A stretch of 36,245 nt of DNA from an uncultured bacterium (GTDB lineage: Bacteria > Verrucomicrobiota > Kiritimatiellia > RFP12 > UBA1067), in contig CADCGZ010000013.1 in assembly GCA_902801025.1 (NCBI GenBank), positions 1 through 36,245 on the forward strand, given 5' to 3'. This document shows, one piece after another, positions 18,852 through 34,138 of this stretch. The translations under genes were made by a program, and so were the position numbers. The stretch's first letter is position 1, and each line of letters starts with the position of its first letter. The notes under the pieces are model-generated. The model worked only from the letters and a program-made list of their open reading frames with translations, made no database searches and was not told where the DNA came from.

Positions 18852-18874
18852 CCGCTTTCGCGTAAAAGTTCCAC

Positions 18875-18908
18875 TTGCCAGCCAGATTGGGATTTAGTAG
18901 ACTATAAA
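18875..18908 (+). promoter_or_regulatory. Candidate promoter of the giant TPR/ExbBD operon
   Basis: TTGCCA at 18875-18880 is followed after 17 nt by TAGACT (18898-18903), overlapped by TATAAA at 18903-18908. Either -10 places the start of transcription within a few bases of the ATG at 18914, and no Shine-Dalgarno is seen. The 62-nt gap from the previous gene holds no terminator hairpin, so read-through is possible. Confidence 0.45.
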
Positions 18909-18913
18909 CAATT

Positions 18914-21900
18914 ATGAAAAGACAGTTTTTTCTTCTTGTCGCCTTTGCGGGAGCCGCAGCCGTCGCCTTCGCCGATGCGGATCTTGAGAAGGAGTTCGAC
19001 GAGGCCGTCAAGTCGGGCCATCCTCTTGCTGCCGAACGCGCCTTTAAGAAGCTTTCCGAAGAACGCCGCGACCTCTCGCCCAACCGCTACTTCGAGGCGG
19101 CCGAGGTTTCGCGCGAGCTTGGCAATGACGTCGACAGGCGCACCCGGCTATCCCACTTTATCAAGGTCTCCAAGGCGTGGAACGACGCCGTGGAGCAGGC
19201 GGCGTGGGAGCTGTGCCTCAATTCTGACGATCCCGACGCGTTCGTGCTCCTCGCCGAGAAGTCGGCTGGTTCGCGCAGGGTCTACGACAACGCCATGCGG
19301 CTTCTCGAAGGCTTCCGCAAGCAGAAGCGCGCCGCCGACTTCCTCAAGGTGGCCGACGCCGCGCTCGCGGCGTTCAAGGCGGACAAGGACCGCACCGAGA
19401 TCCTTGCGCGTGTCGTGGCGATGGAGACAGAGGTGGGGCTTGGCCTTTCCGACGAGGACTTGCGCGGTTTCTTCGGGCGCAACGTCTGCCGCGATCTTTC
19501 CGTGCTAAACCCGGTGTTCAACTCGCGCGGCGATGCCTTCCCGAAGTCGTGGAGAATAGACCTCTCCTGTTCCACCGGCGCGCTTCTTTCGCCCGAGACG
19601 CTTACATGGCTGGCGAAGGTCGGCACCAACAAGGCGGAACGCGCCGACGCCGTGCGTCTCTTCAGGAAGTTCGAGCCGCTCGTGTTCGACGGCAGGCACG
19701 GGCGCCATGCATGTGTCATGACGAAGATGCACGTCGCGCTGGCTCCAGAGCTCCTTCCTGCCGGGGCGGAGGCCGTTTCCGCCGCGATATGCGCCGACAT
19801 CGACAAGGTCGTGGCGAGCGATGGCATAGTGACGAACGAAGTGGCGAATCTGATGCAGCATTGCGCCAATTCCGCGTTGACGCCGGCCGATGTCGCAAAG
19901 ATGAGGGAGAAGTACGCCGTGTTTGTCTCTCCCGGCGACATGCCGGGCTTGTTCCGCCTCGCCGAAGCGTGCGAAAAGGCCAATTCCACGAAGCCCTACC
20001 ACGACATCCTGCCGCGCTGCAGCGACGAGTCGTGGGTGCGCTATGCGATGATGCCCACGTTTGCGAAGCTGGGGGACGATAAGGAGCTGCGGAAGGCGTT
20101 TGTCGAGCAGATGCTGTTCGGCGACCCTGATCCCAACCACGTGCTTTCGTCGATCGCGGCGAGCAAGATGTCCGACAGGGAGAAGGTTGCCCTCCTTGAG
20201 ACGGCATATGCCAAGTCTGGCGCCAATTCCTTCTGGCAATGGTGTGTGGAGCACAAAAGGGCGGCGAAAAGTCCCGTCTTCGCGAGCCAGCTCGCGAAGG
20301 GCTTCCTCTCCAAGGTAAAGACGGACGCGAAGTCGAATGTCCGGCTTGTCGAAATACGGCGCGAGATGAATGCCCTGAAGCGAGGAAGCGGGAACAAGGC
20401 GCCGGAAGTCGCGCACAAGCTGTTCGAAGAGGCCTGCCGCGAGTTCAAGGGCCAGTGGCCGCAGCCGAACAAGTGGGAAAGCAGGGTGTTCCGATCGATT
20501 GTCCGCAAGTACGTCGATCTTTGCCAGCACGACGGCGCCGCCGCGCCGATTGCGATAAAGGCAATCGCGGACAAGCTCGACCCCAAAGACGACAATGCCT
20601 GGCGGGAGGCCAACGTCTTTGATCTCGTTACCAACAGCATAGGCGAGCGCAACGCGCTTCTCGACGTGGCGCGCATAAGGCAAAAGGCGGACTACATCAC
20701 GGAAGTCCGTCTTGACAAGGGGACGGAGAGGCTGCCGGTCCCCGTAGAGGCGTTCGCAAAGGTCGATCCTGGCGCGGCGGTCGGCTTCATCGACCGAAAC
20801 TGGCACAAGGACAATCCTGACGAACGGCGCCTGACGCCGGAACTCGCGGCATCGCTCGTCGCCGTGGTGATGAAGAATTTCGACTGCGGGAAGCTCGGCC
20901 CCGGCAAGGCCCATGGCAAGCTTTTCCCCGTGGCCATGAGCATCGCGCGCACGTCGCCGCAGCTCGCGTCCGCCTTCCCCCTCGACAAGGTTGCCGGCGA
21001 GGTGCTCGACCCGGCTCTCGAGGCAGGGCGTCCGGCGCAGGCCTTTCTTGCGCTGGCCGCCGCATGTGGCAGGCTTGACGCATATCTGAACAGGTACATG
21101 TCGATGCTTTCGAAAGTCGACCCGCCTACCCGTCTTGGAAGTCTCGTCGCCATCTGCGAGAATCCAGATGTCGCAACGTTCGGCAATGCGGAAAAGGGGA
21201 CGATCGACCGCTTCGACGGCATTTTCGCGACGCAGCTCATGCCGACGCTAAGGGCGGTCAAGGCGAAGTCCGCGGCGTGGACATGGCTTGGCGACGACGA
21301 CGGGACGCTTGCGAAGCGCGTCAACGAATGGGCCTCTTCGGCCGTTCGCAGCGGCAAGCCGGCGACAAAGTCAATCGTCGACGAGTTCTTCCGCGAGATG
21401 GTGCGCCTCAAGAACGCCGGCGGCGGGGGCTGGAACGACTGGGCCGGCCGCGGCAGGGTTCCCTATTACAAACATGTCTACAGCCAGGGGCTTGCGTCGA
21501 CAAACGCCGTTCTCCTTGCACAGGTCGCCCATTCGTTCGGCCGCGCCATCACCCGCCATGCTATCAGGGACGATGCCGTCATGGACATCCTCGATCGGTC
21601 GCGCTCCGAGGAGATGTGGGAGCCGATCTACCTTTTCGTATGCGCAGTTGCGGGCGACAACAACAAGGAGGTCTTTGACATGGCGGCGCGCTTCCGCGCC
21701 GAGGCGTCGACCCATCTGCCGGGCGTCTATCCCGTTCCCGAGAACGATCCCCTCTATCCGCTCTACGTTGCCGCCGACGAGTTCGTGCGCAACAACTTCG
21801 AGCGCGCGACCGAGCTTCTGACCTCGCATTTGCGGGAGTTCGAGCGTGACGCTGCGAAGCTGCCGCCGGCCTTCACCGCCTGGGCGGTCGACCAGATGCG

Positions 21901-24900
21901 CCTCATGCGCGGCGAGAAGGACGCGATGCTGATACGCGCCCGCGCGCTCGCCACCAAGCTCCTCGACGACGAGTCGAAGCTGACTCCCGAAGTCGCCGCC
22001 GCGATGATCCTCGTCCGTGCCGAGTCGTTCCGCGACCAGCAGAACTTCGAGGCGGCGAAGCTCGAGTACCAGACCATCCGCAACAACCCGGCGTACGCCA
22101 AGACACCGGCCGCGCGACGCGCCATGTTCCGCGCCGTCGACCTGATGATCGAGTCCGGGAACGCAGCGTCCGCGGAATCGACGCTTGAATACTGGCTCAG
22201 CCAGCCCGACACTGAAATCCAGGCCCAGGCGCACTATTTCCTCGCTCGTATCGCCTTCGAGAGGAAGGACTACGAGGAATGCGCCAAGCGCCTCAGGGAG
22301 GTGTTCGCGATCGACTTCACGCACACCGAGGCGCGGTTCCTCCACGGCCAGTGGAAGCTCGCGACGAACAGTGAAGTCGACGAGACCGAGGTCATGGTCG
22401 GCAGCGTCGCCGACCGCACGGCCGTGCGCCCCGGCCAGCAGCTCTCGATCACCGTCCAGGACCGCAACCTCTCGGTGGCGGGCGGCGGCAATACGATCCC
22501 CGTCGTCATAAAGGCCGTGCCGGGCGGCGATTTCGAGACGATCCAGCTCACCCCCTCGTCGCGCGATCCCGGGCTTTTCAAGGGCGCGATCGACGTGCGC
22601 CTCGCCTCTGCCGTTCCGACCAACCTCGTTCTCGAGGTGACGGGCGCCGATACGATTTCGTATGCGATCGACCCCGCCTTCCTCGCGGCGCGCGGGCTTC
22701 CCGCAGGCCGTCCCAAGCTGGTGTCCGTCGTGGACGACGCCCGGCTTGCGATAGGCGCGGGGTCTCCGCGCGTGGACGAGGCCGAGTCGGCCGCGCAGGT
22801 AGAGGCCCTGGTGGACGACGGCGTTGCAGACGATTCGCCTGGCATCAAGTCGCTCCGCCCGGGCAATCCACTGCACATCGCAGTCTCCGACAAGGACCGC
22901 TCCATCGGCAAGGACGGCGGGTCGGTTCAGGTCGTGGTGTCAACGACGTCCGGCGACCGCCTGCCCGGCGTGGAGCTGAAGGAGGTCCGCCCGTTCTCGG
23001 GCGTCTTCCGCGGCTCCGTGCGCACGGCGCTTCCCCCGCCGCGCGCCTTTGCAAGCGATACGGCCGTCGGGTTCAATCCAGGCGACGTGATAAACTCGAC
23101 GCGCAGCGGCTCGTGGCGTTCCCTTGCGGACGGCCAGCCGGTCAAGTGGCTTGAGGTCGACACGATGGGTTCGCATCTCTTCTCCAACGCCGTCGTCCGC
23201 ATGGAGAATCCCGACGACATAACGAAGATCCGGCTTGTCGGATCCCTCGCGGGGAAGAGATTCAGTCTCGGCACTTTCCCAGCGGCCGATCCCAAGACCC
23301 GCGTCGGCCTCCGCCGTCAGGTCGCTGAGCAGGGCGGCTTCCGCGGAGAGCAGTCTCTCAGGGACTTCATGGAAAGCTCCAAGGCGCCGAAGGGCGAGAC
23401 CGCCACGAACATAGTGTTCGCGCCGATGTCGCATGGTCCCGCGACTGCGGCCCTTTTCTCCGGCGTCTTCGTGACTCCCGAAAAGCTTGACTTCATGCGG
23501 TTCAGGATCGTCCAGCATAGCAAGGGCGCCAACGCCCTCAAGGGCGTGTGGCTTTCGATCGCCCTCGACGGTGAGACGGTGTTCTCGGGCTCGGGGATGC
23601 AGCTTGCCGGCGCTCTCGCCGCCTTTGAGATATCCGTCGGCGTCCACCGCCTCGAGGTGTTCGCGACAGGCGCGGGCCAGGGTCAGGGTTCCAGCGCTCG
23701 CGACTCCTTCAGCCTGCTGTGGGAAAAGGCAGAAGGCGAAACTCCGGTGCCCGTCCCGGCCGAGTGGTTCGACGCGGAGAAGCACCCCGAGATCCTCGCC
23801 TTCGTAGCCGACCGCGCGACGATCGTCCGCGACGCCGACGGTTTCTCGGCCACGTTCCCCGAGCCCGTCCGCCTTCGCGCCCTGCGCTGGGAGTTCCTCG
23901 GCCGGCGCGGGCCGTACGTCTCGATCGACTCCATGGCCGCAGTGGATGCGGAGGGCGGGCAGATCCTTCCCGTCGAAAGCGACTTCTCCGACGCGCAGCG
24001 CAACGACATTCTCGAGGTCGCGCCGGGCGACCGCATTTCGGTGTCGTACTTCGACGAGCGCACGACGCACGGCGCCAGGAGGAAGGTCGAGAAGACGATG
24101 CTCTCCAGCTTCAACAACGCCTCGGTCGGTTTCTTCTTTGAAAGCGACGACTACGTGCCCGGCAGTGGGGATTCGCGCTTCCACGAGGCCTACCGCTTCG
24201 TCCCCGGCGATTCCATCGTCGTGTCCGTGTCGGACAGCGACCTCGACGCGTCCGACGAGGCCGACACGATAGAAGCCAAGATCGTGGCGCGTTCCGGGAA
24301 GAGCGTCGTCCTGAAGCTTTTGGAGCAGGAATTGAGCCAAAACGCGGACGGCGTCCACACCGGCAAGTTCCTCGGGCTCCTCAAGACGGCGCCGGCGGGC
24401 GGCGGAGGCGGAAAAGACACGATCGAGACGGTCGACAACGACGTCCTGACGCTTGAGCACCTCGACCGCGAGAACACCAACCCGGGAGTTCCCGTCGTCC
24501 GTACCGCTTCCATTAGCGCCACGCGCCGCACAAAGCCGGTCGTGACCCTCTTCCGCGCCGGGACGGAGCGCGTAGTGGACGAGTCCCCGGCCGCGAAGCT
24601 GCGCATTGACTCGATACGCCGCCGTCCCGGCAACGAGTCCGTCGACACCGTCTACCGCGACAATGTGTTCGCCGAGCCGATGGATGCCGTCGTGACCGAC
24701 ACGACGAATGCCATCGTGATGAACGTCGACGCTCCGATCCTCGTGCGCGTAAACGACCTGTCGCGCGCGCGCCATGCAGCGTCGTTCCTCACGCTCGAGG
24801 CCGTCGCCACTTCCGAAGCCGAACTCGCCGAGGAGGAGGGCATGGAGCCGGAGTCGGTCTGCGCGTTCATGCGGCTTGGCGGGGCCTTCGACGGAGTGAC

Positions 24901-26497
24901 GCTGAAGTCCGGCGGAGAGACGCCGCGCGTCGCGCGCCAGGCGGGCAGCTTCAACGGGATGATTCGCGTCCTGGTAGGCACGGCTGAAGCCGCAGCCGCC
25001 GCGGCTGCGGAGATGGCCGCCGCCGAGAAAGGCGGCGGCGCCGGCGAATACCGCGGCATACTCCCGATCGTCGGCAACGATACCGTGCGCCTCAGGGTGA
25101 AGGACGGCGACGAGGTCATAGCCGAGCGCACCGTCTCGTTTGCGGACGACGCGACGCTTGACCTGATGGACTCCACCTTCTCCGCCGAGAGGACCTCGGT
25201 CCACTGCGGCGAGCGGTTTTACGTCCGCGTAAGGGACGCGGACTGCGACACGACCGACGAGGCCGACAAGGTCGAAGTCTCCGTCAAGGGGTCCGGCATG
25301 GGCGTCGCCCGCAAGATCGAGCTCGTCGAGACGATGCCGCACTCCGGCGTCTTCACCGGCGTCGTCCGGCCCGTCATCTTCCCGAAGGGCGAGGAGATCC
25401 CCTCGGTCGTGACCGGCGGCGTCGCCACGGCCGCGGCCGACGCCGTGGACGACCGGCTCCCCGTCAGGTACGGCGACAGCGTGGAGTTCTCCTACGAGGA
25501 CGAGAAGCGCTTCTCGCCGGGCCCTGCGCAGACTCTCACGGCCACTGGCAACGTCAGCAAGGGCTCCGACGGCTCGCTCCGCATCTTCTCGAAGCGCTTC
25601 CGCGACGTCGACCAGGCGGTGCTTGTGCAGTTCCGCCTCGCGGAGTGCCTTTTCGAGCAGGCGAAGGAGCATCGCCGCAGGAAGCAGACCGAGAAGAGCT
25701 CCGAGGCGATTGCGCGCGGCAGGTTTATCCTAGAAGAAGCCCTGAAGAACTACCCGGGCACGGCCCATGCGGCGCAGGGAGAGTTTCTGCTCGCGAACCT
25801 CTCCCAGGAGCTTGCCGCCGAGAGCAGGGAAGCGGGCGACGAGGAGAAGGCGCGCCAGCTCTACACCGAGGCGCTTTCGCGCTTCTCGACCATGCTCGCC
25901 GCCTCTCCGCGCGGCGAATACGCCGCTCGGGCGCAGTACCACAAGGCGCTCTGCCTCGAGATGCTGGGCGATTTCAGGCGCGCCGGCGAGGAATACGTCA
26001 AGATGACGTATCTCTATCCCGACTCCGAACTTGTCGGCGACGCGACCGTGCGCCTCGCCACGCACTACTACAAGAACGAGAAGCGCTACGACGTGTCGGC
26101 GCGCATCTACGAGAACTTCCAGAAGCGGTTCCCCAACCACTCCAAGGCGTCACGCGCTCTCTTCATGTGCGGCAGCTGCTACGTGAAGGAGGGCGATCGG
26201 ATACAGGCGGAAATGGAGGAGCAGGGTTCCGGCTCCCTCTCGCCGAAGGCCGAGAAGATGTACACTAAGGCGATGAAGGCGTTCGAGTCGATGGCAGAGA
26301 TCTATCGCACAGACAAGCCGGAGATGCGGGCGCAGGCGCTCTACTGGGCGGGCGACGCGGCTCTCAGGGCTCGTTCGGCCCGTAGCGCGTATCTCTTCCT
26401 GAAACGCACGGTCCTGGAGTATCCCGAGACCGAGTGGGCGCGCCGCGCGCGCGGCCTGCTCCTGCAGGAGTCCGACATGTTCAAGGATATGGAGTGA
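18914..26497 (+). CDS. Giant exported TPR / beta-module protein (2527 aa)
   Basis: The signal peptide is residues 1-20 (ending AVAFA). The N-terminal 1150 residues are almost all helical, with TPR- or HEAT-like repeats; the clearest TPRs lie at about 950-1160. Beta-rich modules follow near 1163-1233, 1313-1375, 1763-1829, 1939-2026 and 2095-2159. Each opens with a strand pattern like PGDxIxVxVxDxD. The best ones close with SRDPGLFKG (1216-1224), RPFSGVFRG (1359-1367) and MPHSGVFTG (2141-2149). Between them, about 1500-1720 resembles PA14- or discoidin-like lectin folds, though this is weak. An Ala/Gly-rich linker is at about 2027-2050. Classic TPRs occupy about 2236-2527. It should be periplasmic or surface-exposed and probably a scaffold. 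No catalytic motif was recognised. It heads a run of eight collinear genes that includes ExbB/ExbD. Confidence 0.8.
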   Translation: MKRQFFLLVAFAGAAAVAFADADLEKEFDEAVKSGHPLAAERAFKKLSEERRDLSPNRYFEAAEVSRELGNDVDRRTRLSHFIKVSKAWNDAVEQAAWELCLNSDDPDAFVLLAEKSAGSRRVYDNAMRLLEGFRKQKRAADFLKVADAALAAFKADKDRTEILARVVAMETEVGLGLSDEDLRGFFGRNVCRDLSVLNPVFNSRGDAFPKSWRIDLSCSTGALLSPETLTWLAKVGTNKAERADAVRLFRKFEPLVFDGRHGRHACVMTKMHVALAPELLPAGAEAVSAAICADIDKVVASDGIVTNEVANLMQHCANSALTPADVAKMREKYAVFVSPGDMPGLFRLAEACEKANSTKPYHDILPRCSDESWVRYAMMPTFAKLGDDKELRKAFVEQMLFGDPDPNHVLSSIAASKMSDREKVALLETAYAKSGANSFWQWCVEHKRAAKSPVFASQLAKGFLSKVKTDAKSNVRLVEIRREMNALKRGSGNKAPEVAHKLFEEACREFKGQWPQPNKWESRVFRSIVRKYVDLCQHDGAAAPIAIKAIADKLDPKDDNAWREANVFDLVTNSIGERNALLDVARIRQKADYITEVRLDKGTERLPVPVEAFAKVDPGAAVGFIDRNWHKDNPDERRLTPELAASLVAVVMKNFDCGKLGPGKAHGKLFPVAMSIARTSPQLASAFPLDKVAGEVLDPALEAGRPAQAFLALAAACGRLDAYLNRYMSMLSKVDPPTRLGSLVAICENPDVATFGNAEKGTIDRFDGIFATQLMPTLRAVKAKSAAWTWLGDDDGTLAKRVNEWASSAVRSGKPATKSIVDEFFREMVRLKNAGGGGWNDWAGRGRVPYYKHVYSQGLASTNAVLLAQVAHSFGRAITRHAIRDDAVMDILDRSRSEEMWEPIYLFVCAVAGDNNKEVFDMAARFRAEASTHLPGVYPVPENDPLYPLYVAADEFVRNNFERATELLTSHLREFERDAAKLPPAFTAWAVDQMRLMRGEKDAMLIRARALATKLLDDESKLTPEVAAAMILVRAESFRDQQNFEAAKLEYQTIRNNPAYAKTPAARRAMFRAVDLMIESGNAASAESTLEYWLSQPDTEIQAQAHYFLARIAFERKDYEECAKRLREVFAIDFTHTEARFLHGQWKLATNSEVDETEVMVGSVADRTAVRPGQQLSITVQDRNLSVAGGGNTIPVVIKAVPGGDFETIQLTPSSRDPGLFKGAIDVRLASAVPTNLVLEVTGADTISYAIDPAFLAARGLPAGRPKLVSVVDDARLAIGAGSPRVDEAESAAQVEALVDDGVADDSPGIKSLRPGNPLHIAVSDKDRSIGKDGGSVQVVVSTTSGDRLPGVELKEVRPFSGVFRGSVRTALPPPRAFASDTAVGFNPGDVINSTRSGSWRSLADGQPVKWLEVDTMGSHLFSNAVVRMENPDDITKIRLVGSLAGKRFSLGTFPAADPKTRVGLRRQVAEQGGFRGEQSLRDFMESSKAPKGETATNIVFAPMSHGPATAALFSGVFVTPEKLDFMRFRIVQHSKGANALKGVWLSIALDGETVFSGSGMQLAGALAAFEISVGVHRLEVFATGAGQGQGSSARDSFSLLWEKAEGETPVPVPAEWFDAEKHPEILAFVADRATIVRDADGFSATFPEPVRLRALRWEFLGRRGPYVSIDSMAAVDAEGGQILPVESDFSDAQRNDILEVAPGDRISVSYFDERTTHGARRKVEKTMLSSFNNASVGFFFESDDYVPGSGDSRFHEAYRFVPGDSIVVSVSDSDLDASDEADTIEAKIVARSGKSVVLKLLEQELSQNADGVHTGKFLGLLKTAPAGGGGGKDTIETVDNDVLTLEHLDRENTNPGVPVVRTASISATRRTKPVVTLFRAGTERVVDESPAAKLRIDSIRRRPGNESVDTVYRDNVFAEPMDAVVTDTTNAIVMNVDAPILVRVNDLSRARHAASFLTLEAVATSEAELAEEEGMEPESVCAFMRLGGAFDGVTLKSGGETPRVARQAGSFNGMIRVLVGTAEAAAAAAAEMAAAEKGGGAGEYRGILPIVGNDTVRLRVKDGDEVIAERTVSFADDATLDLMDSTFSAERTSVHCGERFYVRVRDADCDTTDEADKVEVSVKGSGMGVARKIELVETMPHSGVFTGVVRPVIFPKGEEIPSVVTGGVATAAADAVDDRLPVRYGDSVEFSYEDEKRFSPGPAQTLTATGNVSKGSDGSLRIFSKRFRDVDQAVLVQFRLAECLFEQAKEHRRRKQTEKSSEAIARGRFILEEALKNYPGTAHAAQGEFLLANLSQELAAESREAGDEEKARQLYTEALSRFSTMLAASPRGEYAARAQYHKALCLEMLGDFRRAGEEYVKMTYLYPDSELVGDATVRLATHYYKNEKRYDVSARIYENFQKRFPNHSKASRALFMCGSCYVKEGDRIQAEMEEQGSGSLSPKAEKMYTKAMKAFESMAEIYRTDKPEMRAQALYWAGDAALRARSARSAYLFLKRTVLEYPETEWARRARGLLLQESDMFKDME
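24990..25039 (+). repeat. Two perfect inverted repeats inside the Ala-rich linker of the giant gene
   Basis: CCGCAGCCGC (24990-24999) and GCGGCTGCGG (25001-25010) are perfect 10-bp arms around one base. GCCGCCGCC (25016-25024) and GGCGGCGGC (25031-25039) are perfect 9-bp arms around GAGAAA. Both lie in codons for Ala and Gly, so they may be a by-product of composition. Confidence 0.5.
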
Positions 26498-26502
26498 CGG
26501 CG

Positions 26503-28149
26503 ATGGATGCAAGAAGCTTGATATTTGTCGCCTTTGCGGCGATTGTTCCGGCGGTGCACGCCTGGGACTGGCGCACCGACTGGCGGATGCGTGGCGACAT
26601 CTACCGCACGTTCGACTTCACCGTGCGCGGCGGCATCGACCGCGCGTCCAAGGCGTTCGACAAGGCCGTGACCGACGAGTTCAGGGGCGGGCAGTCCGAA
26701 CAGGACCGCATCGCCAGCTTCCGCGCCGCGGCCGCCGAGTGGCGCAAGGTGCAGGTGCAGTCCGAGACAGGCGACTTCGACGAGAAGATCCTCTCCTACG
26801 CGCTTTTCATGCAGGGCTGCGCCCGCGAGCGCGCGAAGGACTCGAACGAGGCGTTGCGCCTCTACTCCGAGGTCATCGAACTCTATTCCGACATCACCTG
26901 GGTGTCCGTCCCCGCCAAACTGCGGCTCGGCTGCCTCCAGATGTCCATGGGCGACGTCCGCAAGGGCGAGGCGACGCTCATGGAACTGCTCGACGACCCT
27001 GCGTCGCAGAAGACCGTCGCGAGGGCGATTGCGCAGCGAATCATGGGGGACCGGCTGTGGAACGCCGGGAAGTTCGACGACGCGATCGCATGTTTCAGGG
27101 AGGTCATGGGGACGGAGATCGCTGGCGAATCGCGCAGAAACGCCGCCCGCGACCGCCTTGTGGCCATCGCGCTCGCGCGGGGCGACTATTCCAATTTCGA
27201 CGAGCTCACGTTTTTCGGCGTACAGAACGGCGATGCCCCTCGCCTCGACGCGGTCCGCCGCATGTTCGACACCGTGTGCTACGTGTGGCTCCGCAACTTG
27301 GGATGGAACGACTTTGGCTCGCGCATGGAGAAGCTCTATCCCGGCGAATCGGCCCGCAAGAAGAAGCTTGACGCCTCGAAGGCCTCGTTCCTCGCGTGGT
27401 TCGAGGGGAAAAGCTCGCTCTATGCCTCGCTCGGGAGGCAGATGGACTACGCCCTTGACTGCCTGCGCGCGGCGACGCTTGTCGACAAGAACGACGTGGT
27501 GTCGGCGCGGCTCAAGGCCGTGGAAAACGCGATTCGCGCCCAGAAGGACGAGTCCGCCGCGTCGAAGGCCGCGTGGGCCGCAAAGGACATTCTCTGCACG
27601 GTGCAGAAGTACGACCTCGCCCGCCGGATCCCCGATCTCGTGAAGAATCCGCTTTCCTCGTCGATGATGCGCCACCAGATCGAGCTCTCCGCCGGCAAGC
27701 ATGCCGCCGCCGCAATGTGCCTCGAGGAGTATCTCGGCCACAAGCCGCCGCCCGACGCCGCGAAGAACGCGAAGATGACACTTGCGCAGATATACCGCGA
27801 CAACCTCGGAAAGTACGACAAGGCAATCGCGATCTTCCAGGAGTTGAACGACCCGCCGCGCACGCTCTGGGAGCTCTACTCGACGTATTGGAAGGCCGGC
27901 AAGAAGAAGGAAGCGTACTCGATGCTCGTCGAACTCGAGTCGATGTTCCCGCCCGAGGCGCCTCGTGCATTTTACACCCATGCGCAGCGGCTTGAGGAAG
28001 ACGGCAACGTCAAGCAGGCGATAGCGATCTACAGGCGGCTTCTGTCGCAGCCGGAATGGAAAAAGACGGCCGAGTCGTCGTGGGCGCACCAGGCGCTCGA
28101 GCGGCATGGCGTCGCGACTGGCGGAGCCGTGGTGAACGAAGTGAGATAG
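26503..28149 (+). CDS. Exported TPR protein (548 aa)
   Basis: A signal peptide (1-19, cut after VHA) precedes the mature start WDWRTDW. The rest is helical and reads as TPR-like repeats throughout, for example FMQGCARERAKDSNEALRLY, MGDRLWNAGKFDDAIACF and TLAQIYRDNLGKYDKAIAIF. No catalytic or beta module is seen. The ATG at 26503 is chosen because it gives the signal peptide and has GGAG 8 nt upstream. It begins 5 nt after the stop of the giant gene, which argues for one transcript and a shared complex. It is probably a periplasmic adaptor for the larger proteins. Confidence 0.8.
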   Translation: MDARSLIFVAFAAIVPAVHAWDWRTDWRMRGDIYRTFDFTVRGGIDRASKAFDKAVTDEFRGGQSEQDRIASFRAAAAEWRKVQVQSETGDFDEKILSYALFMQGCARERAKDSNEALRLYSEVIELYSDITWVSVPAKLRLGCLQMSMGDVRKGEATLMELLDDPASQKTVARAIAQRIMGDRLWNAGKFDDAIACFREVMGTEIAGESRRNAARDRLVAIALARGDYSNFDELTFFGVQNGDAPRLDAVRRMFDTVCYVWLRNLGWNDFGSRMEKLYPGESARKKKLDASKASFLAWFEGKSSLYASLGRQMDYALDCLRAATLVDKNDVVSARLKAVENAIRAQKDESAASKAAWAAKDILCTVQKYDLARRIPDLVKNPLSSSMMRHQIELSAGKHAAAAMCLEEYLGHKPPPDAAKNAKMTLAQIYRDNLGKYDKAIAIFQELNDPPRTLWELYSTYWKAGKKKEAYSMLVELESMFPPEAPRAFYTHAQRLEEDGNVKQAIAIYRRLLSQPEWKKTAESSWAHQALERHGVATGGAVVNEVR

Positions 28150-28171
28150 TACGACGGAGGGATGTCGAGTC

Positions 28172-30412
28172 ATGAAGCAAAACCTGAAACATTCTGCAAA
28201 TCCGTTCGCGGCGGCCGTCGCCGTGGCGAGTGTCGCGCTTGCGTCCGTGTGCGCCGTTGCTCAGGATCAGCCGCAGGAGGGGGCCGCACCCGTGCAGGCC
28301 GCCTCGAACGAACGGCTCGTCGAGGCCCGCGCGGCAAGGATGGTCAAGAGCGCCATCGCGCTCTTTTCCTCCAACGAGGAGGATCGCGCCGTCGGCATGC
28401 TCGAAGCCGTGTCGAGACTGTATCCAGATTCTCAGATGCGCTTTTCCGCCGCGCTTGAGCTTGGACGCCACTTCCTCGAAAAGCGGGTCTTCGACCGCGC
28501 TCTCTCCGAGCTTACGCGGGCCGGCGGCGCCACGGACCCCGAAGTCCGCGCCGAGTCGCTGCTCCTGCTCGGCCGCATGTATGCGGCGAAGGGCTCGGCT
28601 TCGGAGGCGGCGATGGCGCTCAGGCGCCTCGTGCAGGACCATCCGTCGAGCCCGTTCGCGAACGACGCCTACTTCATGCTCGGCCAGCTGCACTTCGAGT
28701 CCGGCCGCTGGTCGCGCGCCGCAGAGGCGTTCGAGATGGTCGGAACCGCCGTTCCCGAGAGCTCGTCAAAGTCGAACGAGACGGTTCTCGTCGAGGCGGG
28801 GCAGCGCGTGTTCGTACATGTGCGAGACAAGGACCTGACGATCCTCGACTCGCTCGGCGAGAAGTCCTATGTCGAGCTTTCGAGCAAGTCCGGCGACGCG
28901 GAGAAGGCCGAGCTCGTCCGCTTCGGGCGTGCAGAGGGCGAATTCCTGGCGTCCGTGCAGATTTCGCCTTCCGATACGCCGAAGGGCGACGGAGTGCTTA
29001 CGGTGCACGGTTCCGAGCCGGTCCAGGCCGTCTATGTCGACGCCAACACCGAGAGCGGCGACGTGAACAGGAAGGTCCTCGCCGAGTCGTCCGTCGTGTC
29101 GTCGGCGTCGATAGCGTTTCTCGACGGCGCCCAGCGAGAGAGCATCCACGGCGTCTTTGTCGGACAGCCCACCTTTGTGCAGCTGAGGGACTTCGACCTC
29201 GACGTCTCTGGCACTCCGGACACCGCGAAGATCATCGTCAAGACCCTCTACCGCGAGCGCCCCGAGTGCGCCCCGGGCGAGACCCAGCCGCCGCCGCCCG
29301 CCCCTGACGCGCCGTGGCTGACCCGCACCGAGACCGAGATGACCGTCACGGAGACCGGCCCTCGGACGGGAGTCTTCTCGTGCAGGGTCGTTCCCGTCTT
29401 GATGCCCGACGGTACGAATGCGCCGCCTGCCGCGGCGGCGGGGGAGGTGTACGTCCGTCCCGACGAGAAGATCGCCGTCGAGTACATGGACGCGCGCCAC
29501 ATCGAGGGCTTCAAGCCCGTGGCGAGGGGCGCCGAGGCGTTTGTCCTCGTCGGCGGCTCTACCGAGCCACAGTCTACCGTTTCGCATTCTTCCGTCGCCG
29601 CAGTGCAGGCGAAGAAGCTCCTGATCGAGGCGCGGCTTCTCTGCAAGTGGGGGCTCATCTTCAAGGACGTCGGGCTCCAGGAGAACGCGAACGCAAAGGC
29701 GGACGAGGGTTTGATGCGGGTCTCCGAGATCTTCGACCTCGCGTCCCGCAACTCGCTCGACAGGTCCATCGTCGAGGAGGCCTACGAGGCCCGCTGGAGT
29801 CTTCTCATCGTCAAGGACGCGTTTCGCCAGGCGATCGAGACATGCAATGCGCTCGTCAAGCGCTATCCCGACACGGTGCTTGCGGACAGGGCGTTCCTGC
29901 AGATCGCCAACGCCCGCATCCAGGAGGACACGAAGGAATCGCGTGCCTCGGCTCTCGGCGTCCTTTCCGCGATCATAACCCTGCCTAGCTCCCCCCTGAA
30001 GGCCGAGGCGCAGTTCCGCATAGGCGAGGTGCGCGAGGCCGAGGCGCGTGCGCAGGCCGCCGAAAACGGCGGGCGCAAGGCCGACTTCTCGGCGGCTATC
30101 GCGGCCTACCGCCTCTGCGCGGAGACCTATCCGTCGAGTTCGTTCGCCGGCGAGTCGTTCAAGCGCATCGTAGACTACGACATCTCGATCAAGAACTACG
30201 CCGCCGCGCAGGAGACCCTCGAACGCGTCTTCCAGGACTATCCCGACGCGCCGTGGCTCGACGAGATGATGCTCAAGTGGGGCGTTGTGCGCCACAGAAT
30301 GGGCGACACGGAGGGCGCGAAGGAGAAGTTTCGCCAGCTTCTCGACGAGTATCCTGGCGGGAAGGCCGCGAAGACGGCATCCGATTTCCTTGCGAAGCTC
30401 GGCGACGAGTGA
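28172..30412 (+). CDS. Exported TPR / beta-module protein (746 aa), smaller relative of the giant protein
   Basis: The signal peptide is about residues 1-30 (ending CAVAQ). TPRs lie at about 45-195 and again at about 470-746. Between them are two beta modules like those in the 2527-aa protein. Module one (about 205-290) has EAGQRVFVHVRDKDL. Module two (about 320-440) has VGQPTFVQLRDFDLDVSG and closes with GPRTGVFSC (396-404). The TPR-beta-TPR plan repeats that of the giant gene on a smaller scale, so the two may be paralogous or interlocking subunits. A GGAGG lies 11 nt before the ATG. The gene follows the 548-aa gene after 22 nt. The 39-nt gap behind it leads to exbB. Confidence 0.8.
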   Translation: MKQNLKHSANPFAAAVAVASVALASVCAVAQDQPQEGAAPVQAASNERLVEARAARMVKSAIALFSSNEEDRAVGMLEAVSRLYPDSQMRFSAALELGRHFLEKRVFDRALSELTRAGGATDPEVRAESLLLLGRMYAAKGSASEAAMALRRLVQDHPSSPFANDAYFMLGQLHFESGRWSRAAEAFEMVGTAVPESSSKSNETVLVEAGQRVFVHVRDKDLTILDSLGEKSYVELSSKSGDAEKAELVRFGRAEGEFLASVQISPSDTPKGDGVLTVHGSEPVQAVYVDANTESGDVNRKVLAESSVVSSASIAFLDGAQRESIHGVFVGQPTFVQLRDFDLDVSGTPDTAKIIVKTLYRERPECAPGETQPPPPAPDAPWLTRTETEMTVTETGPRTGVFSCRVVPVLMPDGTNAPPAAAAGEVYVRPDEKIAVEYMDARHIEGFKPVARGAEAFVLVGGSTEPQSTVSHSSVAAVQAKKLLIEARLLCKWGLIFKDVGLQENANAKADEGLMRVSEIFDLASRNSLDRSIVEEAYEARWSLLIVKDAFRQAIETCNALVKRYPDTVLADRAFLQIANARIQEDTKESRASALGVLSAIITLPSSPLKAEAQFRIGEVREAEARAQAAENGGRKADFSAAIAAYRLCAETYPSSSFAGESFKRIVDYDISIKNYAAAQETLERVFQDYPDAPWLDEMMLKWGVVRHRMGDTEGAKEKFRQLLDEYPGGKAAKTASDFLAKLGDE

Positions 30413-30451
30413 CGCCCGAAAGATCTAAAACAAAAGAAGGGAGAACACGAC

Positions 30452-31084
30452 ATGATGGGATATCTGATGGACGGAGGATGGATGATGCTTCCACTTCTCC
30501 TGTGCTCTATTGCGATGGTCGCGGTCATAATCGACCGCGCCCGCGCGTTTCGCGCTGCGTCGCGCGTAGACCCGGTTTCGCTTAGGGAACGAGTATGCGC
30601 GGCCGTCGCGTCGGGCGACCTCGCGGGAGCCGCCGAGGCGTGCTCGTCGAGCGAGGGACCTGCTGCGGCGGTAATGCTCTGCGGCATCGAGCGCCTGCGC
30701 CACATGAAGGAGAAGGGCAAGGGCGAGTCCGAAATCGAGCTCGGCGTCTCGAAGTCGATGGAGGACTACGCGCCAAAGGCGATGAACGGGCTTGAAAAGC
30801 GCATGGGCGCGATGGTGCTCATAGCGTCGATCTCGCCTCTTATCGGAATGTGCGGGACGGTGACGGGCATGATCAACTCGTTCTCCGCGATGGCCGAGGC
30901 GGCGGGCCTCGATCCGGGGGCGGTCGCGGGAGGCATTTCCGAGGCGCTCATCACGACGGCGGCCGGCCTCATCATAGCGATCCCGGGCGTCGTCGCCTAC
31001 AACTTCTTCCAGAAGAAGGTCGAAGAGTGGAACATGGAGCTCGAGGCCTCCATAGCTGGAATCGTCGCGGCGGTGGGCGCGTGA
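30452..31084 (+). CDS. exbB: ExbB/TolQ/MotA-family proton channel subunit
   Basis: This is a 210-aa inner-membrane protein with three TM helices (about 11-28, 118-141 and 164-187). The MotA/TolQ/ExbB core is clear: LIGMCGTVTGMINSF in the second helix, and the TTAAGLIIAIPGVVAYNFF stretch of the third. Five such subunits surround an ExbD dimer and use the proton gradient to drive a periplasmic linker. AAGGGAG lies about 8 nt before the ATG. The stop overlaps the GTG start of the first ExbD (GTGA). It is more likely a dedicated motor for the three upstream TPR proteins than a TonB-uptake motor, because no TonB-dependent receptor is nearby. That assignment is an inference. Confidence 0.93.
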   Translation: MMGYLMDGGWMMLPLLLCSIAMVAVIIDRARAFRAASRVDPVSLRERVCAAVASGDLAGAAEACSSSEGPAAAVMLCGIERLRHMKEKGKGESEIELGVSKSMEDYAPKAMNGLEKRMGAMVLIASISPLIGMCGTVTGMINSFSAMAEAAGLDPGAVAGGISEALITTAAGLIIAIPGVVAYNFFQKKVEEWNMELEASIAGIVAAVGA

Positions 31085-31500
31085 AATCAAAGAAGAGAGC
31101 TTCCGAAGACGGGATCAGCCCGGACTTGACGTCCTTCTCGGACATCGCGAACCTGCTGATCATCTTCTTCATCCTGACGACTTCGCTCGTCAGGCCCTTT
31201 GGCCGCCGCATGGACATGCCGGCCTCGGCGAAGCCGCCCGAGACGCGCCAGCAGGACAATACCCCGACGGTGCGCGTCACTGCCGACCGGCTGATGCTTT
31301 CCGAGGGCGAGGGCAACGAGCGCGAGGTGACGATGAACGAGCTGAGAGCCGACCTCTGGCGCAGGAACTTCCCGAGCCGCAAGGAGACCGAGCGCGCCGT
31401 AGTCGTCGAGACGGCCCCCGAGGTCACCTACGAGCGCTATTACAACGTAGTCACGGCAATTGCGGCGGCGGGCGGCGTCGTGGCTCTCATGACGGAGTGA
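31081..31500 (+). CDS. ExbD/TolR-family protein 1
   Basis: This is a 139-aa bitopic protein. A short basic N-terminus leads to the TM helix with the proton-carrying Asp (D21 in SFSDIANLLIIFFIL), followed by a periplasmic domain. The start is GTG at 31081, inside the exbB stop (GTGA), which also gives a normal ExbD N-terminus; longer frames run inside exbB and are not credible. It is paired with a second, different ExbD just downstream. Confidence 0.9.
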   Translation: MKSKKRASEDGISPDLTSFSDIANLLIIFFILTTSLVRPFGRRMDMPASAKPPETRQQDNTPTVRVTADRLMLSEGEGNEREVTMNELRADLWRRNFPSRKETERAVVVETAPEVTYERYYNVVTAIAAAGGVVALMTE

Positions 31501-31504
31501 GAAG

Positions 31505-31903
31505 ATGGCGATAAGACGGAGAAAAAAGCCGAACCTCGTGTTGCCGCTCTCTTCAATGGGAGACATCGCGTTCCTTCTCATCATCTTCTTCATGCTTGCG
31601 TCCAACTTCATGAAGACGGGAAACGTCGACCTCCAGCGCCCCGGGGCGCCGACTCTCGAGCAGCAGGAGCCCGCAAAATGCTCGGTGATGGTCGATAGGG
31701 ACGGCGTAGTGTGGTGCGACGGCGCGCAGGTTTCGGCCGCCGAGCTCGCCTCGATCATCAAGCCGCTCGTCGAGCGGGACCGTGAACTTGCAGTGCACGT
31801 TTCCGTGCACAAGGACCTGAAACGCGACGAATTCATGCCCGTCGTCGAGGCCGTAAGCGAAAGCGGGGCAAAGATAGTTTTGACAGGAGAACCGGAGGAC
31901 TAA
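31505..31903 (+). CDS. ExbD/TolR-family protein 2
   Basis: This is a 132-aa ExbD paralogue, with basic N-terminus MAIRRRKK and TM Asp D20 in MGDIAFLLIIFFML. The periplasmic domain ends with the usual VVEAVSESGAKIVLTG strand-helix-strand. It starts 4 nt after ExbD 1. Two non-identical ExbD genes behind one ExbB is the layout of the AglQ-AglR-AglS gliding motor of Myxococcus and of some TonB systems. Confidence 0.93.
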   Translation: MAIRRRKKPNLVLPLSSMGDIAFLLIIFFMLASNFMKTGNVDLQRPGAPTLEQQEPAKCSVMVDRDGVVWCDGAQVSAAELASIIKPLVERDRELAVHVSVHKDLKRDEFMPVVEAVSESGAKIVLTGEPED

Positions 31904-31906
31904 GCC

Positions 31907-32344
31907 ATGGCAAGACCAGATGAACTTCTAACGGACATAGAGCGTTCCGTATTCGGTCGGGCGCTCGTCGTGTCGATCATTCTGCACGCGGTGCTGATAG
32001 GCGCCACGTCCATATCCCTTTTCAAGGACTGGACGGAATACGGCGTCCACTCGCCCTCGTGGATCAACGCCGAAAAGACCAAGGCGCGCAAGGAGGCGGA
32101 GGAGACCCGTCGCCGCGAGGAGGCCGAGAAGAAGGCCGCGGCAGAGGAGGCGAAGGCGGCGGAGATGCGCGCGGCCGCGTCTAACGAGACGGCGAAGGCG
32201 TCCGCAAAGGCCGCAGAGCCCGCGCAGGCGGCTCCCGCCGAGGCTGCGAAGACCGAGGCCAAGGAGGTGAAGCAGCCGCCCGAAATAAAGCCGCTTCCTC
32301 CCAAAAAGGGCTTTGAGTACGGCGAGGACCTTTCGCTCGACTGA
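31907..32344 (+). CDS. Short TonB/TolA-like membrane anchor without a C-terminal domain
   Basis: This is a 145-aa protein with a single N-terminal TM helix (about 19-39). It carries the S-x-x-x-H motif (S23, H27) that TonB and TolA use to contact ExbB/TolQ. A TolA-like Ala/Lys/Glu helix follows (about 55-115), then a Pro/Lys segment (KPLPPKKGF), and the protein stops. There is no TonB-C or TolA-III domain, so it cannot bind a receptor in the usual way. The frame is intact and the stop lies 11 nt before the next start, so this is probably the native form. A GGAGG lies 8 nt before the ATG. The distal partner may be supplied by a TPR protein or by the DUF4159 protein. Confidence 0.8.
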   Translation: MARPDELLTDIERSVFGRALVVSIILHAVLIGATSISLFKDWTEYGVHSPSWINAEKTKARKEAEETRRREEAEKKAAAEEAKAAEMRAAASNETAKASAKAAEPAQAAPAEAAKTEAKEVKQPPEIKPLPPKKGFEYGEDLSLD

Positions 32345-32355
32345 GACAAGGCAGG

Positions 32356-33975
32356 ATGAACCTTCCCGAGGCCATATTGACGACAGTGGAGCGTTGCTAC
32401 GCGGCGGTTGCCGGCGCGGCGCAGACGGTTCTGTCGTTCGTATGGCGTCTCCAGTCCCGGTTCTCCGCGACATTGCGCCTTTCGGTCGGAATGTGCGGCA
32501 TGGCGCTTTTGCTTGTTGTCAGCGCCTCGCTTGTCTCCGGCCATTACGTCTCGCTTTGCGACTTTGACGCAGCGCTCGTGCGCTATCTCGAGGTGGCGGG
32601 CCATCTCGCGGGAGGTGTGCGGCTGGCGTTCGTCTGTGCGGCGGTCGCGGGGCTTTGCGCCCTCACTGCGGCGCTTTTGCCGCTGAAAAAGCCGTTCGTC
32701 TTCCGCGTCGCTGAGGCCGCCTTCGCGGCGGCGACGGCAGTCGCGGCTTGTGCGTTCGTGTGGATAGTGCGCGTTCCTGCGATTCTCTTCGCCGCCGACC
32801 GCAAGACGTTCGACGCGATGTCGCGCAACGACCTCTGGACGTCTGCACTTGTCTGCGCCGCGCCCGCGCTCCTCTGGATAGCGCTTCTCTTTCTTGGGCT
32901 CGTCCAGAAGTCGGTGCGGGAACGCTACGGCGTAGCTTCCGTGCGCTGGGGCGACGACATGTTGCGCTCGATCAAGACTGGCGGACGCGACCGCCGCTGG
33001 CGCTCGTCGATCTACTGTGCGGTCACTCTTTTTCTTGCGGTTCTTTTCCTTCCATATCTTTTCTCGCTCTGGGGATGGGAGAAGGCGTACACGCTCCCAA
33101 AGGGCGGTGGCGAACAGGTCTTCGAGGTAGTCAAGGTCAAGCGCGAGAAGCCGAAGAAGAAGCCGAAGAAGATGACCGTCAATCCGTGGAGTCCCTACAT
33201 TCTCGAGCGCATGGACATCGACGACGTCGTGACGCTGAAGGAGCTCGAGCAGGAGACGATGGACACCTACGTCGCCCAGCAGAACGCCTCGAAGGGCGGC
33301 AAGGGCAAGGGCAGCGGCGGATGGCCCAAGGGCATGGCCGATTCCGCGATACGCTTCATTCGTCTCAAGTACTCTGGCGGCGACTGGGATCAGGACATGG
33401 GCAAGGGCGCGGACTACAACCTCCTGATCAAGTTCCATGAATGGACCGGTATGAAGATCGCGCGCGAGACGGAGTTCCGCGAGATTTCCCGGCTCAAGTT
33501 CTTCCCGAAGAAGAAGGCGCCGCCGTTCGTCTTCATGACCGGCATGCGCGGCATCTCGATTTCCGACTCCGAGGCGAAGGTACTTCGCGAATACTGCCAG
33601 CGAGAGGGCGGCATGCTTTTCATCGACAACGGCGGCGGCAGCTTCGATTCGGCCGTCAAGAACATGCTGAGAAAGGTGTTCCCCGGGTTGCCGCTCGTCG
33701 ACGTTCCGAACGACGACCCGATCTATCAGCGGCCCTATGCGTTCCCCGATGGTGCGCCGCCGTTCTGGCACCACGCCGGATATCGCGCGAAGGGCATCCG
33801 CGATGACGGGCGCTGGCTTGTCTACTACCACCCGGGCGACGTGAACGACGCGTGGAAAGACGGTCATTCGGGCGCGTCTGCCGAAGTGGCGGACCAGGCG
33901 TACAAGCTCGGCGTGAACGTCATGTTCTACGCTTTCAACCAGTACTATCGCCGACACTACGGCGACGACGAGTAG
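32356..33975 (+). CDS. Five-TM membrane protein with a C-terminal DUF4159 domain
   Basis: This is a 539-aa protein. TM helices are near 44-64, 86-108, 117-140, 160-184 and 220-242. A basic, proline-containing linker follows (EVVKVKREKPKKKPKK, about 257-272). The DUF4159 domain is about 330-535 (IRFIRLKYSGGDWDQDMG; FMTGMRGISIS; GGMLFIDNGGG). DUF4159 has a ThuA/glutamine-amidotransferase-like outline, but its role is unknown to me. The VKREKPKKKPKK linker resembles the TonB spacer. With an odd number of helices the domain and N-terminus lie on opposite sides, so DUF4159 may be periplasmic. It closes the run of eight collinear genes. Confidence 0.82.
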   Translation: MNLPEAILTTVERCYAAVAGAAQTVLSFVWRLQSRFSATLRLSVGMCGMALLLVVSASLVSGHYVSLCDFDAALVRYLEVAGHLAGGVRLAFVCAAVAGLCALTAALLPLKKPFVFRVAEAAFAAATAVAACAFVWIVRVPAILFAADRKTFDAMSRNDLWTSALVCAAPALLWIALLFLGLVQKSVRERYGVASVRWGDDMLRSIKTGGRDRRWRSSIYCAVTLFLAVLFLPYLFSLWGWEKAYTLPKGGGEQVFEVVKVKREKPKKKPKKMTVNPWSPYILERMDIDDVVTLKELEQETMDTYVAQQNASKGGKGKGSGGWPKGMADSAIRFIRLKYSGGDWDQDMGKGADYNLLIKFHEWTGMKIARETEFREISRLKFFPKKKAPPFVFMTGMRGISISDSEAKVLREYCQREGGMLFIDNGGGSFDSAVKNMLRKVFPGLPLVDVPNDDPIYQRPYAFPDGAPPFWHHAGYRAKGIRDDGRWLVYYHPGDVNDAWKDGHSGASAEVADQAYKLGVNVMFYAFNQYYRRHYGDDE

Positions 33976-34001
33976 CCGCGCCACGGGATTTGAAGATTGC
34001 G

Positions 34002-34047
34002 TATAATCTCTTCCTGCTCGCAAGGTGTCCGTGATTTTTGGTATAAT
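34002..34047 (+). promoter_or_regulatory. Tandem -10 boxes upstream of the GH97 gene
   Basis: TATAAT occurs at 34002-34007 and at 34042-34047, exactly 40 bp apart. The second is an extended -10 (TGgTATAAT from 34039). Neither has a good -35. The second would give a 5' UTR of about 85 nt that contains the GC-rich repeat tract. Confidence 0.55.
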
Positions 34048-34071
34048 AACCCAACATTTTAGCGGCAAAGC

Positions 34072-34118
34072 AAGTGAGCGAGGGCGAAGCCCGAGCGGAA
34101 CGAGCGGCGCCGCGAGCC
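34072..34118 (+). repeat. GC-rich low-complexity tract in the GH97 5' UTR
   Basis: GAGCG-type units recur here. CGAGCGG occurs at 34092-34098 and 34101-34107. GGGC-GAA-GCCC forms a small hairpin (34082-34092), and GCGGCGCCGC (34104-34113) is a perfect palindrome. It lies between the promoter boxes and the start codon, so it could affect translation. No known riboswitch was recognised. Confidence 0.5.
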
Positions 34119-34138
34119 TGATTAACAAAGGAAAAATT

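What the first reader, a model, noticed from the sequence alone, without database searches (positions are those of the whole stretch)
18914..33975. Candidate undescribed envelope machine: giant TPR/beta-module proteins with a private ExbB-ExbD-ExbD-TonB-like motor and DUF4159 protein
Eight collinear genes with gaps from about -4 to 39 nt encode three exported TPR proteins (2527, 548 and 746 aa), a complete proton-channel set and a five-TM DUF4159 protein. There is no TonB-dependent receptor, Pal or TolB nearby, so ordinary Ton or Tol function is unlikely. One TolQ-type plus two TolR-type genes with large TPR partners recalls the Agl/Glt gliding machinery of Myxococcus, but no direct homology is claimed. 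A force-transducing complex acting on the outer envelope or cell surface is the simplest reading. Its purpose (motility, polymer uptake, S-layer or cell-wall upkeep) is open.
Basis: partly seen in the sequence, partly recalled or inferred. Interest (0 to 1): 0.85.

Follow-up and report, generated by a model that had tools for sequence, protein, structure and literature searches.

The report
Conserved motor-driven bacterial envelope machine
A gut bacterium of the Kiritimatiellae, and many relatives, carries a conserved eight-gene kit that pairs its own proton-driven membrane motor with giant repeat-built exported proteins; it looks like a so far undescribed machine for pulling on the outer cell envelope, though what it pulls is unknown.

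Summary
Eight collinear genes (18,914-33,975; gaps -4 to 39 nt) encode three exported TPR proteins (A 2527, B 548, C 746 aa), ExbB (D), two ExbDs (E, F), a TonB/TolA-like tether without C-terminal domain (G), and a five-TM protein with a DUF4159 domain (H).

In 288 Kiritimatiellia genomes, all 41 with H also have C, and 40 of them have ExbD E; three have C without H and two E without H, all at contig ends or in genomes under 70% complete. Where contigs allow a decision, the blocks are linked in about 30 of 34; the four apart are in the window's genus. The set recurs outside the class.

G keeps the invariant motor-binding histidine of TonB/TolA. The ExbB forms its own clade, apart from paralogues of this genome. 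A and C carry S-layer-like beta modules (weak matches).

Best reading: a private 5:2-type motor transmitting force to a TPR/Ig-like scaffold. The load is unknown; gliding, uptake and envelope upkeep stay open. The nearest published system (vWA force transducers, PMC12204202) shares the layout but not the parts; a vWA-type set sits elsewhere in this genome.

The parts
18914..26497 (+). A: giant exported TPR / beta-module / TPR protein, 2527 aa
   Evidence: ORF; YfiO/TPR matches; 14 homologues of about 2500-2900 aa aligned; contains C-like modules
23993..24469 (+). S-layer-like beta module in A (aa 1694-1852)
   Evidence: NCBIfam Kustd1514 S-layer family E=1.4e-11 (far below its whole-protein cut-off), found in 12 of 14 A homologues; A profile's best PDB chain is 8c8k 'Cell surface protein', E=6e-4
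26503..28149 (+). B: exported TPR protein, 548 aa
   Evidence: ORF; TPR; homologue in place in A-B-C loci
28172..30412 (+). C: exported protein TPR (aa 41-199) - beta (205-460) - TPR (476-745), 746 aa
   Evidence: ORF; AlphaFold model mean pLDDT 84.8; 44 of 288 class genomes
30452..31084 (+). D: ExbB/TolQ proton-channel protein
   Evidence: PF01618 E=1.8e-29; own clade in ExbB tree, support 0.94
31081..31500 (+). E: ExbD/TolR 1, TM aspartate kept
   Evidence: PF02472 E=5.8e-14; Asp in all aligned homologues; 42 of 288 class genomes
31505..31903 (+). F: ExbD/TolR 2, TM aspartate kept
   Evidence: PF02472 E=2.8e-17; Asp kept in the homologues shown
31907..32344 (+). G: TonB/TolA-like tether: one TM helix, charged/Ala/Pro-rich stretch of about 100 aa, short acidic C-terminal peptide, no globular domain
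   Evidence: Alignment of 27 homologues with invariant TM histidine; C-terminal peptides
31973..31987 (+). S-x3-H motor-binding motif of G (Ser23, His27)
   Evidence: motif definition in PMC12204202
32356..33975 (+). H: five-TM protein with linker (aa 251-320, low confidence) and DUF4159 domain
   Evidence: TM segments; AlphaFold mean pLDDT 77.9
33352..33936 (+). DUF4159 domain of H
   Evidence: PF13709; fold matches PDB 4i66, E=1.3e-9, TM-score 0.82 on the target; sequence E=7.1e-10
18875..18903 (+). Weak sigma-70-like promoter candidate upstream of A
   Evidence: only site found in 18600-34400, but not more than chance

Best explanation
The eight genes encode one proton-driven, force-transmitting machine of the cell envelope, found in part of the Kiritimatiellia and a few other Verrucomicrobiota. 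Shown by sequence: an ExbB with two different ExbDs (both with the TM aspartate), a tether (G) whose TM helix keeps the TonB/TolA motor-binding histidine but which ends in a short acidic peptide instead of a globular domain, a five-TM protein with a DUF4159 domain, and three exported TPR proteins, two of them with S-layer-like beta modules; they are inherited together. Inferred: D forms a pentamer around an E/F heterodimer as in 5:2 motors; proton flow turns or shifts it; G sits on the flank of D and carries the force; its C-terminal peptide hooks the TPR scaffold (B/C), which passes the force to giant A at the outer envelope or surface; H, placed beside the motor with its DUF4159 domain in the periplasm, couples or gates the contact. 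The likeliest load is a surface or outer-membrane layer that must be pulled, moved or kept in register. The load is the weakest step.
For: Conserved unit: synteny in many loci; H and C together in 41/41 genomes, E in 40/41, over about 18 families of the class; gene orders A-B-C-D-E-F-G-H, B-C-A-D-E-F-G-H, D-H before A-C (G007, read across two contigs), and split, so the link outlives rearrangement. Private motor: clade apart from paralogues of this genome. Motor residues kept. G motif: invariant His in 27 of 27 aligned, C-terminal peptide conserved within subgroups. Fusion evidence: in a related system (TPR-ExbB-ExbD-giant, L108, L062, L107) a TM helix with S-x3-H lies on the same reading frame as a VWA, and in L108 and L062 as a DUF4159 domain too, which joins the G and H functions in one chain. 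Surface link: S-layer-like modules in 12 of 14 A homologues and best PDB profile match 8c8k 'Cell surface protein'. Outside the class: G469, G320, and G522, a single-contig 5.68-Mb genome.
Against: No interaction, localisation, expression or phenotype data. No outer-membrane anchor, barrel or lipobox was seen in A or C (one weak pattern hit in one C homologue), so how force would reach the outer membrane is unexplained. The S-layer matches are weak and partial. TPRs match many unrelated families. In five genomes of the window's genus (G012, G016, G025, G033, G264) A-B-C and D-H lie on separate contigs. Most genomes of the same genus lack the set, so it is not a housekeeping function.
Confidence: 0.68

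Rival explanations
1. It is a Tol-Pal-like envelope-stability machine: TolQ (D), TolR (E, F), TolA (G), a CpoB/YbgF-like TPR protein (C), keeping the outer membrane and wall together.
For: C passes NCBIfam's YbgF cut-off (109.4 against 90.1 bits), all 26 C homologues match that model; D is nearest the TolQ model; G is TolA-like in layout.
Against: No TolB or Pal in the set; present in only 41 of 288 class genomes; the genome has one OmpA/Pal and six other ExbB/MotA loci. D is far below the TolQ cut-off (118 against 221 bits).
Confidence: 0.2
2. It is an uptake machine for large substrates, Ton-like, with TPR/beta proteins in place of a receptor.
For: GH116 and GH97 genes flank the set here.
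Against: The glycosidase neighbours are not kept: among the loci compared, GH97 follows H only in L032 and L033, and other flanks include what look like translation and ribosomal genes. No beta-barrel gene in the set; receptors lie elsewhere.
Confidence: 0.17
3. It is a gliding or surface-motility machine like Agl-Glt of Myxococcus.
For: One TolQ and two TolR as in AglRQS (PMC9389320); large exported partners with surface-type modules.
Against: No Glt/Agl component by family search (a 16-bit GltJ match to G is low-complexity). The paper searches turned up no motility record for these bacteria.
Confidence: 0.15
4. Two independent operons (A-B-C and D-H) that happen to be neighbours.
For: Separate contigs in five related genomes.
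Against: 41/41 co-occurrence, E in 40/41, several gene orders, correlated distances.
Confidence: 0.05

Closest known systems
vWA force transducers with TolQ/TolR motors (PMC12204202, Mol Biol Evol 2025)
   Same: [quoted passage not shown] TM helix with the SHLS motif; first seen in Tichowtungia, also a Kiritimatiellia; function unknown.
   Different: There one protein has TM helix, linker and a vWA domain. Here the tether (G) has no C-terminal domain and a separate five-TM DUF4159 protein follows; giant A and B are added. A vWA-type set (ExbB-ExbD-TPR-VWA with S-x3-H helix) lies at another locus of this genome (L161). I could not fetch the paper's own sequences to test homology.
Tol-Pal system
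   Same: TolQ/TolR-type motor, TolA-like tether, YbgF/CpoB-like TPR protein.
   Different: No TolB, no Pal, no TolA C-terminal domain; second TolR; giant TPR/beta protein; DUF4159 protein; patchy distribution.
Ton system (ExbB-ExbD-TonB)
   Same: Motor proteins and the TM helix of the transducer.
   Different: No TonB C-terminal domain, no receptor in the set.
Agl-Glt gliding machinery of Myxococcus
   Same: One TolQ-type and two TolR-type proteins.
   Different: No detectable Glt or other Agl component.
Type IX secretion / gliding motor GldLM with PorW/SprE
   Same: Proton motor with a large periplasmic TPR partner; weak PorW/SprE TPR match in C (43.9 bits, cut-off 250).
   Different: No GldL/GldM family match; the TPR match is generic.
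DUF4159 protein Hoch_4089 (PDB 4i66)
   Same: Fold and sequence of the H domain.
   Different: A 200-residue structure recorded as uncharacterized, without the five-TM part.

Membership tests
5:2 proton motor (ExbBD/TolQR superfamily) | MotA/ExbB protein plus ExbD-type partner with TM aspartate | tested here: met
5:2 proton motor (ExbBD/TolQR superfamily) | Pentamer:dimer assembly and proton conduction | not testable with these tools
   needs complex structure and flux assay
Ton system | TonB C-terminal domain on the transducer | tested here: not met
   No match in G by Pfam or NCBIfam; all homologues end in a short peptide
Ton system | TonB-dependent receptor partner | tested here: inconclusive
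   none among scanned window ORFs; two elsewhere in the genome
Tol-Pal | TolB and Pal in the locus | tested here: not met
   absent from the conserved set; one OmpA/Pal on another contig
Tol-Pal | YbgF/CpoB-type TPR protein | tested here: met
   C over the TIGR02795 cut-off; TPR similarity is generic
vWA force transducers (PMC12204202) | TPR - tolQ - tolR - tolR - transducer gene order | tested here: met
   C-D-E-F-G; G and H in place of the transducer
vWA force transducers (PMC12204202) | TM helix with SHLS motif and conserved His | tested here: met
   His invariant in 27 of 27; Ser at -4 kept in the window's subgroup, replaced by Ala/Thr in others
vWA force transducers (PMC12204202) | vWA C-terminal domain on the transducer | tested here: not met
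   no VWA match in any of A-H; H domain matches 4i66, no VWA among the shown fold matches
Agl-Glt gliding machinery | Glt scaffold and outer-membrane proteins | tested here: not met
   no significant NCBIfam match
Zorya and other anti-phage systems | PADLOC model match | tested here: not met
   no match for A-H

The most novel reading that the evidence does not exclude
A distinct class of trans-envelope motor in which a headless TonB-like tether pulls, through a C-terminal peptide, on a giant TPR/S-layer-like scaffold that reaches or forms part of the cell surface, driving movement or renewal of that surface in Verrucomicrobiota.
Probability: 0.22. Interest if true: 0.85.

Novelty: new variant of a known kind. 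Interest (0 to 1): 0.63.

Why it matters
Few proton-driven envelope machines are known (flagellar stator, Ton, Tol, Agl, Gld). This would add one with its own parts list, conserved gene by gene across a bacterial class and found beyond it, and gives DUF4159, a domain named in no paper of the open library searched, a concrete molecular setting. A tether that ends in a peptide rather than a docking domain would be a different way of coupling a motor to its load.

Tried and rejected
Anti-phage function (Zorya-like motor): no PADLOC match. Ordinary Ton or Tol system: missing defining parts. Chance neighbourhood: rejected by co-occurrence. Glycosidase link: neighbours not conserved. Type II secretion / pilus genes upstream in the window: not seen next to the set in the other loci read. 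AlphaFold plus Foldseek for C gave only TPR matches at the top, so its beta part stayed unplaced; for H the only strong match was 4i66. First profile script timed out. Literature: no paper with DUF4159, and none linking Kiritimatiellae to such a motor beyond PMC12204202.

Full report
What is there. The window is one contig of a Kiritimatiellae gut genome; a near-identical copy lies in the goat MAG JAFQYM (98% at H). Eight genes run on the + strand from 18,914 to 33,975 with gaps of 5, 22, 39, -4, 4, 3 and 11 nt. Family searches give TPRs in A, B and C, MotA_ExbB in D, ExbD in E and F, DUF4159 in H, and nothing meaningful in G.

Is it a unit? Protein searches over 288 genomes of the class gave strong H matches in 41 genomes, C matches in 44 including all 41 (Fisher P about 1e-46, which ignores shared ancestry), and E in 42, including 40 of the 41. 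The exceptions are G043 and G169 (C only, the block near a contig end), G153 (C and E, 59% complete), G229 (E only, 68% complete) and G278 (H and C, no E). Counting by eye from the contig positions in those tables, the blocks are linked in about 30 of 34 genomes where this can be decided; the four apart (G012, G016, G033, G264) belong to the window's genus, as does G025, seen in the smaller search. In G012, G016, G025 and G033, A-B-C and D-E-F-G-H were read and each stays intact. Other orders exist: B-C-A before D-H in many families, and D-H before A-B-C in G007, the last read across two contigs. Carriers fall in about 18 families, several of which also have non-carriers, so the set was probably gained or lost as a whole more than once.

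Phylum. With a profile of H, 24 of 388 genomes of the phylum matched, four of them outside the class. G469 and G320 carry A to H in the window's order; G522, a single-contig genome, carries one set with two giants (its far end not read) and a second, diverged one; G562 is a fragment.

Motor. Both ExbDs keep the aspartate in the TM helix, and D keeps the conserved TM motifs, in the homologues shown (part of the F listing was cut). D homologues form one clade (support 0.94) apart from the three own-genome paralogues that could be aligned and from the ExbBs of a related system; its two main branches largely match the two gene orders. The genome has seven ExbB/MotA loci and ten ExbD matches.

Tether. 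G has one TM helix with S-x3-H. The histidine is invariant in 27 aligned homologues; the serine is kept in the window's subgroup and replaced by Ala or Thr in others. In TonB and TolA this motif binds the motor (PMC12204202). After some 100 charged, Ala- and Pro-rich residues G ends in a short acidic peptide, conserved within subgroups (for example FEYGEDLSLD here) but differing between them. That this peptide docks on TPRs is my inference.

H. Five hydrophobic segments, then a low-confidence stretch (251-320), then the DUF4159 domain. By the positive-inside rule (my reading of the sequence) the domain faces the periplasm. Its fold matches 4i66, Hoch_4089 of Haliangium ochraceum (E=1.3e-9, TM-score 0.82 on the target).

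TPR proteins. C is TPR-beta-TPR in a confident model. A contains C-like pieces: TPR plus beta at about 1052-1249, beta at 1694-1793 and 2046-2209, TPR at 2320-2512, so A looks like an enlarged C. Twelve of 14 A homologues match the Kustd1514 S-layer model in part, and the A profile's best PDB chain is 8c8k, 'Cell surface protein' (E=6e-4). These are weak, partial matches; they suggest a surface-type module, not an S-layer.

Related systems. In L108 and L062 an ExbB neighbourhood (with TPR and ExbD in L108) is followed by a giant with VWA, a TM helix with S-x3-H and a DUF4159 domain; in L107 the same VWA and helix are on one frame and DUF4159 on an overlapping one. This ties the G-type helix to DUF4159 on one chain. 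In this genome, locus L161 has ExbB-ExbD-TPR-VWA, the VWA protein starting with an S-x3-H helix and a Pro-rich linker: that fits the published vWA transducers (PMC12204202). So the window's set is a different system in the same cell, though kin in layout. I could not compare it with the paper's own sequences.

Mechanism and limits. The parts fit a proton motor pulling on an exported scaffold. Composition, co-inheritance and motor residues are shown; assembly, force path and load are inferred.

Noticed in passing
window:41-8793: Type II secretion / type IV pilus-like genes upstream: GspE/PilB-type ATPase, RpoN (sigma-54), secretin, GspM- and PilM-like proteins. Not seen next to the motor set in the other loci read.
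   Followed up: partly
window:10089-15176: ABC transporter genes (ATPase and ABC-2 permease) with a 695-aa and a 226-aa protein of no known family.
   Followed up: partly
window:15195-18851: One ORF joins a glucuronyl-esterase-like domain to a GH116 glycosidase; its first listed start is TTG.
   Followed up: no
L190:5093-6811 with L165: Another motor set on two contig ends of the same genome (TPR-ExbB-ExbD and ExbD-transducer, joining assumed): the 572-aa protein has a TM helix, a Pro-rich linker and a weak squalene-hopene-cyclase-like match (E=1.4e-4, below cut-off), another kind of possible transducer head.
   Followed up: partly
L161:2758-7223: vWA-type force transducer locus in the window's own genome: ExbB, ExbD, TPR, and a VWA protein with an S-x3-H helix.
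   Followed up: partly
L150:805-3612, L059:1441-3405, L145:17712-18848, L058:14925-16577: A membrane protein without significant Pfam match follows H in the B-C-A type loci; also a small gene (about 111-135 aa) between A and D in several of them.
   Followed up: partly
L061:6919-10758: One protein combines a zinc-finger anti-sigma domain, TPRs, DUF4159, VWA and YfbK_C, next to what looks like a sigma factor gene.
   Followed up: no
L094:1206-2570, L095:5929-7296, L098:15503-16873: In split genomes an M18 aminopeptidase-like gene directly follows C (Pfam on L094 only; similar starts in L095 and L098).
   Followed up: no
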